A DNA stretch of 64,000 nt from Sphingomonas sp. GTDB lineage: Bacteria; Pseudomonadota; Alphaproteobacteria; Sphingomonadales; Sphingomonadaceae. Made by a program: the position numbers and the translations under genes. The stretch's first letter is position 1; each line of letters opens with the position of its first letter. Below are positions 4,943 through 35,632 of this stretch, in pieces. The notes beneath the pieces were generated by a model. The model searched no databases and was not told the DNA's origin. It saw nothing but the letters and a program-made list of their open reading frames with translations. The stretch covers positions 806,001 through 870,000 of the forward strand of contig NZ_JAFKMA010000001.1 in NCBI RefSeq assembly GCF_017304635.1. Reading direction: 5' to 3'.

Positions 4943-6100
4943 TCAGCCGCCGAACAGCTGCTTCAGCCCCGCCCAGGCGCGTCCGAAGAACCCGGCCTGG
5001 CCGACGTCGCTCGCCGCCACCAGCGGAAAGCGCTGGTCGCTCTGGCCCGGCACCTTGACGATCAGGTCGGCGACGTGATCGCCCGCCTTGATCGGCGCCT
5101 TGAGCGGGCCGTCATAGACGACCGATGCGGTCATCGATGGGTTGCTGCCTGACGGCACCGTCACCGCCAGATTGTCCTGCGCGACCAGGCCGACATTGCT
5201 CGCCGAGCCGAGCTGGACGTCGGCGGTGGCGACCTGCCGCCCCTTCCCCACCACCGGCTTGCTGCTCCACGCGCCGAAACCCCATTTCATGAAGTTGATC
5301 GACTGTTCCTTGCGGCCGTTGAAACTGTCGAGCCCGGCCAGCACCATCACCAGCCGGCGCCCGTTCTGGATCGCCGATCCGGTGAAGCTGTAGCCGGCCT
5401 CCTCGGTATGGCCGGTCTTCAAGCCATCGGCGCCGGCGACATTGCCGAGCAGCGGGTCGCGATTGTCCTGCGTGATGTTGCTGCCGTTGCCGAGCTGCTT
5501 GCCCCAGGTGAAGTTCGGCAGCGAGTAATAGCGCCGATAGAGGTCCGGAAAGTCGCGGATCGTCGCCGACGCCAGCGTCGTGAGGTCGCGCGCGGTGACG
5601 TAGGTGACGCCGCCGTCGGGCCAGCCGTTCGAGGTGCCGAAATGGCTGTTGGTCATGCCCAGCTTCTTCGCGGCATCGTTCATCCGCTCGGTGAACGCCT
5701 GTTCGTTGCCCGACAGCCCCTCGGCCAGCACTACGCAGGCATCGTTGCCCGACAGCGTGACGATACCCTTCAGCAGATTGTCGACGCTGACATTCTCGCC
5801 CGCCGACAGGAACATGGTCGACCCCTGGCTGTGCCACTTGCGCCAGGTCTCGGGCTGGACGGTAATCATCTTCTGCGCGTTCAGCTCGCCGCGCTTTATC
5901 ATGTCGAACACGACATAGACCGTCATCATCTTCGCCATCGACGCCGGCGGCATGCGGCGATCGGCATCCTTGGCGAACAGCACCGCGTTCGAGCTCAGGT
6001 CGACCATATAGGCGATCGGCGCCGGCGTCTGGAATTCGGGCGCGGCGAAGGCGGGGACGGTCAGCGACGCGGCGGCGAGGAGGAGGGCGAGCTTTTTCAT
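4943..6100 (-). CDS. D-alanyl-D-alanine carboxypeptidase (PBP5/6 type)
   Basis: This periplasmic penicillin-binding protein of 385 residues trims the terminal D-Ala from peptidoglycan stem peptides. A signal peptide (MKKLALLLAAASLTVPAFA) is followed by the catalytic SMAK tetrad (S54-K57), SGN (117-119) and KTG (228-230). The C-terminal beta domain and a final amphipathic stretch (GRAWAGLKQLFGG) match membrane-associated DacA/DacC proteins. I chose the ATG at 6100 because the frame further upstream only adds a non-signal-like extension. It lies downstream of the SPOR protein and transglycosylase genes, forming a wall-remodelling block. Confidence 0.95.
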   Translation of the reverse strand: MKKLALLLAAASLTVPAFAAPEFQTPAPIAYMVDLSSNAVLFAKDADRRMPPASMAKMMTVYVVFDMIKRGELNAQKMITVQPETWRKWHSQGSTMFLSAGENVSVDNLLKGIVTLSGNDACVVLAEGLSGNEQAFTERMNDAAKKLGMTNSHFGTSNGWPDGGVTYVTARDLTTLASATIRDFPDLYRRYYSLPNFTWGKQLGNGSNITQDNRDPLLGNVAGADGLKTGHTEEAGYSFTGSAIQNGRRLVMVLAGLDSFNGRKEQSINFMKWGFGAWSSKPVVGKGRQVATADVQLGSASNVGLVAQDNLAVTVPSGSNPSMTASVVYDGPLKAPIKAGDHVADLIVKVPGQSDQRFPLVAASDVGQAGFFGRAWAGLKQLFGG

Positions 6101-6132
6101 CGAATCGAGTGGCTTCCGTGAGTGGAGTCGGA

Positions 6133-6984
6133 TCAATTGTCGCGAACGACGCGGGCCTGGGCATAGCCCCGCTTGACGGCGGCGTCACGCGCTCGTGCGG
6201 CTTGCGCGGCGGTGACGTAGGGGCCGGTGCGGACGCGGTAGAGAGCGCCGGCGGGCGAGACGCTGCCGCCGATGCTGCGCGCGAGGGCATTGGCGCGGTC
6301 GGCGGTGCTGAACGCGGCGAGCTGGACGTAGAGGTGCGCGTTGGCGGTGGGTGGCGGTGACGGCGCGGCCGCTGGCTTGCGGACCATCGGCGGCCTGGCC
6401 GACGCGAGTGCCGGGCGTGCCGATGGCGTCGGCGCGACCACCGCTTTGGCGCCCTTCCCCGACCGTGTCGTCGCCGCGACCGGCTTGGCGGGCAGGCGCG
6501 TGCGCAGCCCCGCGAGCAACGCCGCCGGGGCGTCGAGCCGCGGCGATGGCGGGCGTCCATTGGCCAGGGCGTTCTGGTCGGCCGGCGACGGCGTGACGCG
6601 ACGGATGCGTACCGCGCCGCGCCCCTCCAGCCCGATCGCGGCGGCGGCGGCCGGGGACAGCCATGCCAGCGTCCCGACCGGCGCATCCTCGCCGTCCGAT
6701 CGCACCAGCGTCGTCCGCCCGCTGTCGAGCATCGTCACCTCGGCATAGCCACCGGCCGGGATACCGCGCAGCTTGGCGACGTAGGTGGCGGGCGCATCGG
6801 TCGCGACGGCGGCATAGCCGACCTCGTCGAGACGATCCGCGCCGCGATCGGACGTGGCGCTCGGCCCGGTCGACGGCGGCGGCCCGTCGCGCGCGTCGTC
6901 GGGACGCGGCGCGGTCTGGGCCGCGGCACTACCCGCGACCAGCACCGCCAGCGCGGCGACCCACATCCTATTGTTCGACGGCAT
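6133..6984 (-). CDS. SPOR-domain protein with degenerate RlpA-like domain
   Basis: This 283-residue secreted protein starts with a signal peptide ending near GSAAAQ. Residues about 52-130 look like a decayed RlpA double-psi barrel: EVTMLDSGRTTLVRSDGE and LSPAAAAAIGLEGRGAVRIRRV echo RlpA's DNGRSVVVRINDRG and LSRAAAERLG segments. I cannot find the usual SWYG and NDRGP catalytic parts. A low-complexity Ala/Pro linker follows, then a C-terminal SPOR domain (about 207-283, YVQLAAFSTADRANALARS) that binds denuded septal glycan. The gene lies between an MltB transglycosylase and a D-Ala-D-Ala carboxypeptidase. SPOR call firm, RlpA ancestry inferred. Confidence 0.8.
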   Translation of the reverse strand: MPSNNRMWVAALAVLVAGSAAAQTAPRPDDARDGPPPSTGPSATSDRGADRLDEVGYAAVATDAPATYVAKLRGIPAGGYAEVTMLDSGRTTLVRSDGEDAPVGTLAWLSPAAAAAIGLEGRGAVRIRRVTPSPADQNALANGRPPSPRLDAPAALLAGLRTRLPAKPVAATTRSGKGAKAVVAPTPSARPALASARPPMVRKPAAAPSPPPTANAHLYVQLAAFSTADRANALARSIGGSVSPAGALYRVRTGPYVTAAQAARARDAAVKRGYAQARVVRDN

Positions 6985-19597: not shown

Positions 19598-20407
19598 TCA
19601 GGCGTCGAGCTGGCGCTCGGCCTCGGCGGCCATCTCGGCCTGCTGCGGCTCTTCCACGGTCAGCGCTTCCTCGACCGGCGCTTCGACCTGGGCGCCCAAG
19701 TCGACGCCACGGCGCGACTGCTGCTCCTGGCCGCCACGCGTCGCGGCGATCGCGACCGCCTCGCAATACAGGCGGATGGCGCGGGCCGCGTCGTCGTTCG
19801 CCGGCACCGGGAACGCGATGCCGTCCGGCGACACGTTCGAATCGAGGATCGCGACGACCGGGATGCCCAGCGTGTTGGCTTCCTTGATCGCCAGCTCTTC
19901 CTTGTTGGCGTCGATCACGAACATCACGTCGGGCACGCCGCCCATGTCGCGGATGCCGCCCAGCGACAGTTCGAGCTTGTCGCGCTCGCGGGTGAGTTGC
20001 AGCACTTCCTTCTTGGTCAGGCCGTGCGTGTCGCCCGATAGCTGCTCTTCCAGGCTCTTCAGCCGGCGGATCGAGTTCGAGATCGTCTTCCAGTTGGTGA
20101 GCATGCCGCCCAGCCAGCGGTGGTTGACGAAATGCTGGCCGGCCTTGCGCGCGGCTTCCGCGATCGGCTCCTGCGCCTGGCGCTTGGTGCCGACGAACAG
20201 CACCTTGCCGCCCGACGCGACCGACGACGACACGAATTCGAGCGCGCGCGCGAACAGCGGCACGGTCTGCGACAGATCGAGGATGTGAACGCCGTTGCGA
20301 TCGCCGAAGATGTAGGGTTTCATCTTCGGGTTCCAGCGATGGGTCTGGTGTCCGAAGTGCGCACCAGTCTCGACGAGCTGCTGCATGGAGACGACGGGTG
20401 CCGCCAT
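19598..20407 (-). CDS. rpsB: 30S ribosomal protein S2
   Basis: This 269-residue small-subunit protein starts [20 protein letters not shown], followed by the invariant [17 protein letters not shown] and [16 protein letters not shown] segments. The ATG at 20407 is preceded by AAGGAG. The C-terminal glutamine/glutamate-rich tail ([19 protein letters not shown]) is longer than in E. coli S2, as common in sphingomonads. Its promoter appears to lie about 230 bases upstream, leaving a long leader that could host autogenous control by S2. Confidence 0.97.
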
Positions 20408-20751: not shown

Positions 20752-20781
20752 TTGACGGATAGAACATCAACAGAACATACA
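20752..20781 (+). promoter_or_regulatory. Putative SOS promoter with LexA box
   Basis: TTGACG (20752-20757) is a good -35 hexamer and CATACA (20776-20781) a weak -10 at 18-base spacing. Between and over them lies GAAC-ATCAACA-GAAC (20762-20776), the reverse complement of the alphaproteobacterial LexA operator GTTC-N7-GTTC. A bound repressor would cover the promoter. The same motif with the same 7-base spacer lies in the recA promoter at 35618-35632. Confidence 0.75.
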
Positions 20782-20868
20782 GCGATCATCAACAGGACAC
20801 GGAACCAAGGGAAACGACAGGCCGTTGATTTCCCATCGGATGTCGTCCGATCGAAGGGGATTAACGCG

Positions 20869-21090
20869 ATGATGATGCTGGCCATCCTGACATTCGCCGG
20901 TGCTTTTGCCGCCGCGGCTTTCGTCATCTACGCGACGGTGACGCCTTCGCTCGACAAGATCCGCCTGGCGCTGAGCGGCCAGGGCGTCGCGTCGATCCTG
21001 CCGCCGCTGCCTCCGCGCCGCGCCTCGACCCTGCGGGTTACGCCGAGCCGCCCGGCGCTGGCGCCGTCATACTGGCGCGCTGCCGCCTGA
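20869..21090 (+). CDS. Small membrane protein, probably LexA-regulated
   Basis: This 73-residue protein has no family I recognise. It begins MMMLAILTFAGAFAAAAFVIY, one membrane-spanning helix, followed by a proline- and arginine-rich soluble tail ([28 protein letters not shown]). The ATG at 20869 has an AAGGGG ribosome binding site; a longer frame from 20752 would start inside the promoter and is unlikely. A LexA-type operator lies about 95 bases upstream, so the gene is probably induced by DNA damage. Small one-helix SOS proteins such as Caulobacter SidA inhibit division; that role is only a hypothesis here. Its 3' end overlaps pssA by 53 bases on the opposite strand. Confidence 0.65.
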   Translation: MMMLAILTFAGAFAAAAFVIYATVTPSLDKIRLALSGQGVASILPPLPPRRASTLRVTPSRPALAPSYWRAAA

Positions 21091-21880
21091 CCTTCGCATA
21101 GCCCCGCACGCTGAGCGGGATGAGCGCGAGGTAGAAGACGCAGACCGCCGCCAGCGTATGCCAGGGCATCGAGATCAGCGCCGCGCCGACCGCGACGATT
21201 ACCACCAGCGCCTCGAATCGGATCCGCCGCCGCAGCTTGATCGACGACCAGCCGTAGGTCGGCAGGCTCGACACCATCAGGATCGCGACGAACGCCACCC
21301 ACGGCGCGACCAGCCAAGGCGAGCGCAGCCACTCGGCGCCGCTGATGAACCACAGATACATCGGCAGCATCGCCCCGATTGCGCCGGCCGGCGCGGGGAT
21401 ACCGGTCAGGTAGCCGGCCGCCTTGCGCGGCTGGTCGCTGGCATCGATCGCAGCGTTGAACCGGGCCAGGCGGAGCGCGGCGAACACCGCGAACAGCAAG
21501 GCGCAGACCCAGCCGAAGCGCGGCGAATCGGTCAGCGACCAAAGGTAGAGGATCAGCGACGGCGCGACCCCGAACGAGATCGCATCGCTTAGCGAATCGA
21601 GCTCCGCCCCGAACCGGCTGGTCCCGCGCAGCAACCGCGCGACGCGCCCGTCGACGCCGTCGAGCACGCCTGCGACCAGGATCATCGTCACCGCCAGTTC
21701 CCACCGGCTGGTGTCGATCGGCAGGCCGGAGCCGCCGGTCGGCACGCTCGCCGCCGCGATCGCGAACCGCACCCCGGTCAAGCCGGAACACAGCGCCAGC
21801 GCGGTCAGCGCGTTCGGCGTGATCGTACGCAGCGGCAGGCCCTGCTGCGCCCGCCGCCGCAACGTGCGCGGCGGCCTCAT
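21038..21880 (-). CDS. pssA: CDP-diacylglycerol--serine O-phosphatidyltransferase
   Basis: This multi-pass membrane enzyme of 280 residues makes phosphatidylserine from CDP-diacylglycerol and serine. The CDP-alcohol phosphotransferase signature is complete: [13 protein letters not shown] followed by GAELDSLSD, with all catalytic aspartates. About eight hydrophobic segments are visible. The ATG at 21880 overlaps the psd stop by 4 bases, so the two consecutive steps to phosphatidylethanolamine are co-translated. Its last 53 bases are antisense to the small SOS gene. Confidence 0.95.
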
Positions 21881-22596
21881 TGGGTGACGCCGCTCACCGC
21901 CTCGCCGCCGACGCGGCCGATGATCGTCTCGCCGGCGATGGTGCGCTGGCCCAGCGCGACCTGGCACGCCGTATCGGGCGGCAGGAATACGTCGACGCGG
22001 CTGCCGAAGCGGATCAGGCCGACACGCTGCCCGGCGGCGATCATGTCGCCCTCCTTCACGAACGCCAGGATCCGCCGCGCGACGAGACCCGCGATCTGGG
22101 TGAAGCCGATCAGGCGGCCGTCCTTCCCTTCGACGACGATGTGCTGCCGCTCATTCTCCTCGCTCGCCTTGTCGAGATCGGCGTTGAGGAACTTGCCGGA
22201 GATGTAGACGACCCGCCGGATCGTCCCCGCGATCGGCGTGCGGTTCACGTGGACGTCGAACACGCTCATGAAGATCGACACGCGCACCAGCGGCGCCTCG
22301 CCCAGGATGGCGAGTTCGGGCGGCGGCATCACCGGCTGGATCATCGTGACCAGCCCGTCGGCCGGCGCGATCACCAGATCGTCGCCGCGCGGCGTCACCC
22401 GGATCGGATCGCGAAAGAACGCCGCAACGAAGACGGTCAGGAAGACGAGCGGCCAGAACAGGACGTTCCAGATCAGCAGCGACAGCAACGCCGCCACCCC
22501 GACGATGACGACGTAGCGCGTCCCCTCGGGGTGCATGCTGGGGAATCGCCACTTGACGGTGGTCGTGCCGGTACCCGGCGGATCGATCGAAGGCAT
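21877..22596 (-). CDS. psd: Phosphatidylserine decarboxylase proenzyme
   Basis: This 239-residue enzyme of the short, PsdA-like class decarboxylates phosphatidylserine to phosphatidylethanolamine. Two N-terminal membrane segments precede [22 protein letters not shown] and [13 protein letters not shown]. The self-cleavage site that generates the pyruvoyl group is in [13 protein letters not shown], where the serine follows FG. It heads the psd-pssA operon and is divergent from icd across about 290 bases. ATG at 22596 (MPSIDPPG). Confidence 0.95.
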
Positions 22597-35594: not shown

Positions 35595-35632
35595 TGTGTA
35601 TCGCGTTTGTTCTCTTGGAACAAGAGGCGAAC
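35595..35632 (-). promoter_or_regulatory. recA promoter with LexA (SOS) box
   Basis: On the minus strand, GTTC-GCCTCTT-GTTC (35618-35632) is an exact GTTC-N7-GTTC operator. Its second GTTC lies within TTGTTC (35618-35623), a -35-like hexamer, followed at 17 bases by TACACA (35595-35600) as a -10. Transcription would begin near 35588, leaving a leader of about 79 bases. Confidence 0.85.

What the first reader, a model, noticed from the sequence alone, without database searches (positions are those of the whole stretch)
20752..21090. Unknown one-helix membrane protein behind a LexA-type promoter
The 73-residue protein at 20869-21090 has no recognised family. Its upstream region contains GAAC-N7-GAAC (20762-20776), the reverse complement of the alphaproteobacterial SOS operator, overlapping a TTGACG -35 and a weak -10. 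The same operator form sits in the recA promoter in this window (35618-35632). Small inner-membrane SOS proteins in Caulobacter (SidA) stop division by binding late divisome proteins; this protein has a comparable membrane helix with a proline-rich tail. No sequence homology is claimed.
Basis: partly seen in the sequence, partly recalled or inferred. Interest (0 to 1): 0.78.

Follow-up and report, generated by a model that had tools for sequence, protein, structure and literature searches.

The report
SOS-controlled small membrane protein of sphingomonads
A tiny, unnamed membrane protein of sphingomonad bacteria carries the switch of the DNA-damage repressor in species after species, which makes it the best candidate for the brake that stops these bacteria dividing while they repair their DNA, although that function has not been tested.

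Summary
The 73-aa ORF (20869-21090) is a real gene under purifying selection: one N-terminal membrane helix, a basic disordered tail, divergent from rpsB, convergent with pssA. A LexA-type box GTTC-N7-GTTC lies within 200 bp upstream in 85 of 90 distinct homologue loci and within 220 bp in 70 of 71 distinct named loci (flanking control bins 0 of 1575). A TTGAC-type -35 often precedes it by 3-5 bp, the place of a repressor. Where profiles fail, 12 of 15 readable same-family rpsB loci still carry box plus small membrane ORF; 0 of 13 outside the family do. In the own genome the box also precedes recA, lexA, uvrA, uvrD, a Y-family polymerase, mmcB, rmuC and an imuA-like gene. The C-terminal Ala-Ala is nearly invariant (85 of 89; own-genome background 12 of 207), perhaps a degradation signal.

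SOS control is nearly certain by sequence. Blocking division, like SidA or SosA, is the best inference (about 0.5), untested. No named family matches. A new, lineage-wide member of a known kind.

The parts
20752..20757 (+). Candidate -35 element TTGACG
   Evidence: Sequence. For 85 of 120 boxes of the family (window included, second boxes of a pair too) a TTGACA-like hexamer (5 of 6 or better) lies in the 30 nt before the box, 74 occurrences at 3-5 bp; 16 of 360 control windows.
20762..20776 (-). LexA-type SOS operator GTTC-TGTTGAT-GTTC (GAAC-N7-GAAC on +)
   Evidence: box in the 200 bp upstream in 85 of 90 distinct homologue loci and in the 220 bp upstream in 70 of 71 distinct named loci; one base from the box GTTCTGTTAATGTTC before the own genome's Y-family polymerase gene.
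20776..20781 (+). Weak candidate -10 (CATACA), 18-bp spacer from the -35
   Evidence: Sequence only; the bases just after the box are most often ATA in the family (84, 70 and 55% of 120 boxes).
20853..20859 (+). Shine-Dalgarno-like GAAGGGG
   Evidence: Sequence.
20869..21090 (+). 73-aa small membrane protein gene, stop included
   Evidence: homologues; dN/dS median 0.25 over the first 48 residues, 51 pairs, all below 1.
20872..20973 (+). Predicted single helix, residues 2-35 (most hydrophobic 19 residues begin at about residue 3)
   Evidence: AlphaFold2: one helix H2-35, mean pLDDT 96, 98, 91 for the first three blocks of ten and 80 for residues 31-40, then 69 falling to 54; hydropathy and charge of the family.
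21076..21087 (+). C-terminal Arg-Ala-Ala-Ala (candidate degradation signal)
   Evidence: Family: 85 of 89 end in AA, three in VA, one in TA; own-genome background 12 of 207. Still AA in 12 of 14 loci for which no overlap with pssA was found.
19598..20407 (-). rpsB (neighbour, divergent)
   Evidence: Pfam Ribosomal_S2 E 3.9e-90.
21038..21889 (-). pssA (neighbour, convergent; its 3' end overlaps the last 53 bases of the small gene)
   Evidence: Pfam CDP-OH_P_transf E 1.1e-20; called pssA in the annotated relative; overlap in relatives.

Best explanation
A LexA-repressed gene for a short single-pass inner-membrane protein that acts as the SOS cell-division brake of sphingomonads. In undamaged cells LexA sits on the box between -35 and -10 and keeps the gene off. 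After DNA damage RecA triggers LexA self-cleavage and the protein is made; its N-terminal helix inserts in the inner membrane and, most likely by helix-helix contact with a late divisome protein (FtsW, FtsI or FtsN), blocks septum synthesis. The conserved C-terminal Ala-Ala then lets a cytoplasmic AAA+ protease such as ClpXP remove it, so that division resumes. Shown by sequence: the gene, the operator, its conservation and promoter position, the single predicted helix, the near-invariant C-terminus. Inferred: LexA binding and induction (about 0.95), division block (about 0.5), divisome target (about 0.4), protease-recognised tail in the cytoplasm (about 0.45).
For: SOS control: box in -200..0 in 85 of 90 distinct loci; other 200-bp bins 0-1 of 90-91 except 7 of 91 at +200..+400; opposite orientation 1 of 90. 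Named loci: 70 of 71 distinct, flanking bins 0 of 1575. The seven spacer bases vary while the half-sites stay. A -35 stands 3-5 bp before many boxes. The box follows the small ORF and not rpsB, e.g. 640 bp from rpsB but 88 bp from the ORF in L235, and is absent from 3 same-family and 13 outside rpsB loci without a boxed ORF. In the own genome the same box precedes recA, lexA (two boxes), uvrA, uvrD, a Y-family polymerase, mmcB, rmuC and an imuA-like gene. Protein: single helix; largest 19-residue hydropathy mean 2.2 on average, beginning at residue 3 (median); net charge 0 before it in 87 of 89 and +6.3 on average after it, which by the positive-inside rule (recalled) suggests N-out/C-in. Precedents: SidA (29 aa, SOS, FtsW) and DidA (71 aa, one helix, FtsN) in Caulobacter (PMC4211646, passages); SosA (77 aa, one N-terminal helix, same chromosomal place across staphylococci, proposed to be removed through its C-terminus by CtpA) (PMC6851548, passages); YneA binds FtsW by its TM helix, and ChiZ, SosA and SidA are modelled on FtsW (PMC13396833, passages).
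Against: No experiment: no LexA binding, induction, filamentation or interaction data. Single-helix SOS proteins with other jobs exist (DinQ, TisB). The tail is basic and probably cytoplasmic, whereas SosA's tail is extracellular and YneA's LysM works outside. In 74 of 80 loci with a convergent pssA the 3' ends overlap, so part of the tail conservation could come from pssA; the Ala-Ala survives where no overlap was found, but the ClpXP reading rests on recalled ssrA-like rules. Fast sequence drift is compatible with many functions. The homologue sets are not phylogenetically independent.
Confidence: 0.5

Rival explanations
1. An SOS-induced membrane-active peptide of the TisB/DinQ type: it depolarises or perturbs the inner membrane and causes growth arrest or dormancy rather than a specific divisome block.
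For: Single-helix SOS peptides with this effect exist in E. coli (DinQ, start of abstract in the listing; TisB, title and start of abstract in the listing). The helix is rich in small residues and uncharged.
Against: The protein carries a long basic tail and a near-invariant C-terminus, unlike the much shorter toxin peptides (sizes recalled). Control by an antisense RNA was not looked for.
Confidence: 0.15
2. An SOS-induced adaptor or modulator of something other than division: a membrane anchor for repair proteins, a protease adaptor, or a regulator of the neighbouring phospholipid gene pssA.
For: Neighbourhood rpsB-X-pssA in 75 of 91 distinct loci; 3' ends of X and pssA overlap in 74 of 80, so their transcripts are antisense at the end.
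Against: Copies for which no pssA was found keep the box and a C-terminal Ala (L097, L099, L100, L101, L125, L127), so pssA is not a needed partner.
Confidence: 0.25
3. The operator serves the divergent rpsB-tsf operon and the small ORF is a by-product.
For: The box lies in the shared rpsB upstream region in most loci.
Against: Box distance tracks the small ORF, not rpsB; 13 of 13 rpsB loci outside the family and the 3 same-family rpsB loci without a boxed ORF have no box; the ORF has median dN/dS 0.25; the -35 direction fits the ORF.
Confidence: 0.02
4. Chance operator and spurious ORF.
For: In the window alone the motif count is not above chance.
Against: Conservation in 85 of 90 and 70 of 71 loci; purifying selection.
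Confidence: 0.01

Closest known systems
SidA of Caulobacter crescentus
   Same: SOS-controlled small inner-membrane protein of an alphaproteobacterium (PMC4211646, passages)
   Different: 29 aa against 73; no long tail; no sequence relation tested; FtsW binding untested here
DidA of Caulobacter crescentus
   Same: 71 aa, one membrane helix, made after DNA damage
   Different: DidA is induced by DriD, independently of SOS; here the box is LexA-type
SosA of Staphylococcus
   Same: 77 aa, one N-terminal helix, same chromosomal place with 25-60% identity across the group, SOS-controlled, C-terminus proposed as the signal for removal
   Different: Gram-positive; tail extracellular and handled by CtpA; tail here is basic and probably cytoplasmic
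YneA / ChiZ
   Same: SOS-induced single-pass division inhibitors
   Different: They carry a LysM domain; none here
TisB / DinQ of E. coli
   Same: SOS-controlled single-helix membrane peptides
   Different: Shorter toxins with antisense RNA partners (partly recalled); no conserved basic tail

Membership tests
   20762-20776, between -35 and weak -10
Alphaproteobacterial LexA (SOS) regulon | Operator conserved upstream of relatives | tested here: met
   85 of 90 and 70 of 71 distinct loci
Alphaproteobacterial LexA (SOS) regulon | Genome has LexA and canonical targets with the same box | tested here: met
   lexA, recA, uvrA, uvrD, Y-family polymerase, mmcB, rmuC
Alphaproteobacterial LexA (SOS) regulon | LexA binding in vitro and RecA-dependent induction | not testable with these tools
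   needs experiment
SidA | 29-aa inner-membrane protein | tested here: not met
   73 aa, helix 2-35 and a further 38-residue tail
SidA | Sequence homology to SidA | not tested
   SidA's sequence was not fetched. A class-wide profile search matched 4 of 385 genomes: the own, one same-genus, and two weak hits broken by stops; it also missed same-family genomes that have the gene by place, so it is not sensitive
SidA | Binds FtsW and blocks division | not testable with these tools
   needs experiment
DidA | SOS-independent induction by DriD | tested here: inconclusive
   LexA box present; a DriD site was not looked for
YneA/ChiZ | LysM domain | tested here: not met
   no LysM match for the window protein or any of 26 members
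SosA | About 77 aa, N-terminal helix, C-terminal removal signal | tested here: inconclusive
   size and helix fit; conserved C-terminus fits; removal untested, tail predicted on the other side

The most novel reading that the evidence does not exclude
This is the founding member of a new, lineage-wide family of SOS checkpoint proteins of the Sphingomonadaceae, unrelated to SidA, DidA, YneA and SosA, that brakes septum synthesis from the membrane and carries its own off switch as a near-invariant C-terminal Ala-Ala degron read on the cytoplasmic side.
Probability: 0.35. Interest if true: 0.72.

Novelty: new member of a known kind. Interest (0 to 1): 0.62.

Why it matters
Ten full-text searches of the held library (listings only, some cut, e.g. 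12 of 117 papers shown) showed no paper on an SOS division inhibitor of sphingomonads; the one sphingomonad SOS data set seen (Sphingopyxis granuli, passages of PMC6472365) names repair genes in the passages seen. The gene was found in nearly every Sphingomonas genome of the order sample, so the question 'how do sphingomonads hold division during DNA repair' becomes testable with one deletion. The family would be an independent case for the recent idea that small SOS membrane proteins converge on FtsW (PMC13396833, passages), and the near-invariant C-terminus would tie checkpoint recovery to proteolysis. It drifts so fast that a profile search misses it in many genera while operator, place and C-terminus stay, a useful lesson for finding other such genes.

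Tried and rejected
Rejected: chance motif; operator for rpsB; C-terminal conservation as a mere by-product of the pssA overlap (14 loci without a found overlap: all end in Ala, 12 in Ala-Ala); tail-driven dN/dS (recomputed on the first 48 residues).

Dropped or missed: L003, L025 (not syntenic) and L108 (doubtful homologue) were left out of the dN/dS, -35 and codon counts, and L025 and L108 out of the C-terminus and charge counts; L025 and L108 stay in the box count as misses. 8 repeats among 99 loci and 8 among 80 were collapsed. Six of 91 loci lack an exact box: L003 (contig edge, hence 90), L025, L108, and L089, L113, L126, which have one-mismatch boxes. Of the 80 named loci L220 (contig edge) and L231 (56-aa reading, true start not found) lack it. 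From I fetched hits in short open frames and left most weak ones inside long frames or with stops, which look like other genes. Of 76 boxes in the own genome 56 were examined; many lie inside genes and others stand before genes without a known SOS role, so many are probably chance (reversed control 46).

Own error, mended: the rpsB query was translated one frame off (it had no internal stops); it found the right places, but its identities mean nothing. One search repeats the test with the right frame and its counts are used here.

Led nowhere: Pfam, NCBIfam, PHROGs and PDB searches; class-wide profile search; paper searches for sphingomonad SOS; passages of PMC13384398 on Caulobacter SOS. No complex prediction with FtsW was possible. 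A fold search was not run: one helix would give meaningless matches.

Full report
The observation. The window belongs to a 3.18-Mb genome whose genus is Sphingomonas: same-genus contigs have the lengths of named Sphingomonas contigs (for example G009:C11 and G059:C1 against S. citri and S. endophytica). The 73-aa ORF at 20869-21090 is as described, and GAAC-N7-GAAC is at 20762-20776 and 35618-35632; the second lies upstream of recA. In the window alone the motif is not above chance (3 seen, 1.76 expected), so the claim needed relatives.

Conservation of gene and operator. A one-sequence search found matches in 38 of 100 relatives, all in the same genus. A 24-sequence profile (24 of the first 30 loci) found 115 of 396 genomes of the order at E 0.01, many of the weak ones in long frames that look like other genes. 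In its printed table 45 same-genus genomes match, the own included; the only same-genus genome among the printed misses, G121, has the gene by place; 261 further misses were not printed. Reading the loci, a box GTTC-N7-GTTC in one fixed orientation stands in the 200 bp upstream of the start in 85 of 90 distinct loci with enough sequence, while the other 200-bp bins have it in 0-1 of 90-91, apart from 7 of 91 at +200..+400; opposite orientation 1 of 90, reversed-pattern controls 0 of 90 in the same bin. Five of those 7 downstream hits lie exactly 11 bp past the stop codon, in reach of pssA, so probably a coding pattern; I did not pursue it. A named set gives 70 of 71 distinct loci, with 0 of 1575 flanking bins in that orientation and 1 of 1575 in the other. 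Spacer bases differ from species to species, so the half-sites look selected. A TTGACA-like -35 precedes 85 of 120 boxes within 30 nt, mostly by 3-5 bp; control windows 16 of 360. Many loci have two boxes 23-34 bp apart. rpsB is divergent upstream and pssA convergent downstream in 75 of 91 distinct loci; 7 show only pssA, 6 only rpsB, 3 neither within the DNA held.

Beyond what profiles see. I gave 30 genomes to an rpsB-based look: 16 profile-negative ones of the same family and 14 outside it, of which 13 returned rpsB. Of the 16, 12 have a box followed by a 68-93 aa ORF with an N-terminal membrane stretch ending in Ala (10 in Ala-Ala, one VA, one TA); for one the contig ends there; 3 have no box, and of these G118 and G164 show no such ORF while G112 has a 98-aa ORF with a hydrophobic start that does not end in Ala. 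Of the 13 outside (11 of the same order, 2 of the class), none has a box or such an ORF. For the 12, homology rests on place, operator, size, helix and C-terminus, not on alignment. Boxed copies occur in about 15 genera (my count from the labels; the g37 copy is doubtful). In genus g36, 5 of 6 loci have rpsB divergent upstream and none of 6 shows pssA; one genome (L268) has two tandem small membrane ORFs ending in EAA, and in g37 (L266) a boxed ORF of this kind stands beside adk (gene name recalled).

The SOS regulon of this genome. The pattern occurs 76 times against 46 for its reversed control. Of 56 sites examined, those between genes include the starts of uvrA, lexA (two overlapping boxes), uvrD, a Y-family polymerase, mmcB, rmuC, two radical-SAM proteins, an imuA-like gene (40 bits, NCBIfam cut-off 150), DUF1810 and egtB, besides recA; several other intergenic sites stand before genes without a known SOS role. 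The polymerase box differs from the one studied here by one base.

The protein. AlphaFold2 gives one confident helix, residues 2-35, and a low-confidence tail without structure. Across 89 family members the length is 70-108, median 75; net charge before the most hydrophobic stretch is 0 in 87 and -1 in 2; after it +6.3 on average, range -1 to 10. By the positive-inside rule (recalled) this suggests a periplasmic N-terminus and a cytoplasmic tail. Invariant columns in a diverse 26-sequence alignment are a Phe in the helix and the last Ala, with the penultimate Ala nearly so. 85 of 89 end in AA against 12 of 207 predicted own-genome proteins. Because the 3' end overlaps pssA in 74 of 80 loci, I looked at the 14 loci without a found overlap: 12 end in AA and 14 in A. 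dN/dS over the first 48 residues, mostly clear of the overlap, has median 0.25 in 51 pairs, all below 1; the pairs are not independent.

Mechanism. LexA control is as well supported as sequence allows. The division brake is an inference from kind: LexA box, one helix, about 75 aa, a conserved C-terminus of the sort that proteases read, one copy found in the own genome. Precedents seen in passages: SidA and DidA, YneA, SosA. A C-terminal Ala-Ala resembles the ssrA class of ClpXP signals (recalled), which would give recovery after repair; that needs the tail in the cytoplasm, as the charges suggest. The main rivals are another SOS membrane function and a toxin of TisB/DinQ type.

What is known. 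No curated family or PDB sequence covers it (two stray weak hits are told under the observation check). In a public S. parapaucimobilis record it is 'hypothetical protein' with a start about 240 bases too early, so that the annotated gene (L269 2258-2737) runs across its box at 2309. Ten searches of the held library showed no paper on it (calls listed under Why it matters; listings, some cut); subscription papers and regulon databases were not searchable, so an entry there cannot be excluded.

Verdict. Observation confirmed; interpretation partly supported. Interest 0.62: not a new kind, but a well-conserved, unnamed SOS gene that makes an open question in a whole bacterial family directly testable.

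Noticed in passing
L143:2302-2451 (G000:C7:887801-887950): A 50-aa ORF with a hydrophobic, signal-like start lies divergent from rmuC across an SOS box; no match in 30 other genomes, so probably not a conserved gene.
   Followed up: partly
L132:1080-2336: An SOS-type box GTTCGCATTATGTTC touches the start of an EgtB (ergothioneine biosynthesis) gene, an unusual LexA target if real.
   Followed up: no
L051, L144, L060: Boxes before two radical-SAM genes (rSAM_link_UDG and PA0069 family) and between a DUF1810 gene and a 2'-5' RNA ligase-like gene suggest further little-studied SOS genes.
   Followed up: no
L268:5347-5619 and 5939-6229: Two tandem small ORFs with hydrophobic starts, both ending in EAA, at the rpsB locus of one genome; only the second has an exact box close upstream.
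   Followed up: partly
L269:2258-2737 (NZ_CP155750.1): Public annotation starts this gene upstream of its own operator (box at 2309), a likely wrong start codon.
   Followed up: yes
homologue loci, +200..+400 from the start: 7 of 91 loci have a further GAAC-N7-GAAC downstream of the gene; in 5 of them it lies exactly 11 bp past the stop codon. Not explained.
   Followed up: partly
L140:2311-2336: The lexA promoter of this genome has three GTTC half-sites 11 bp apart, i.e. two overlapping boxes.
   Followed up: no
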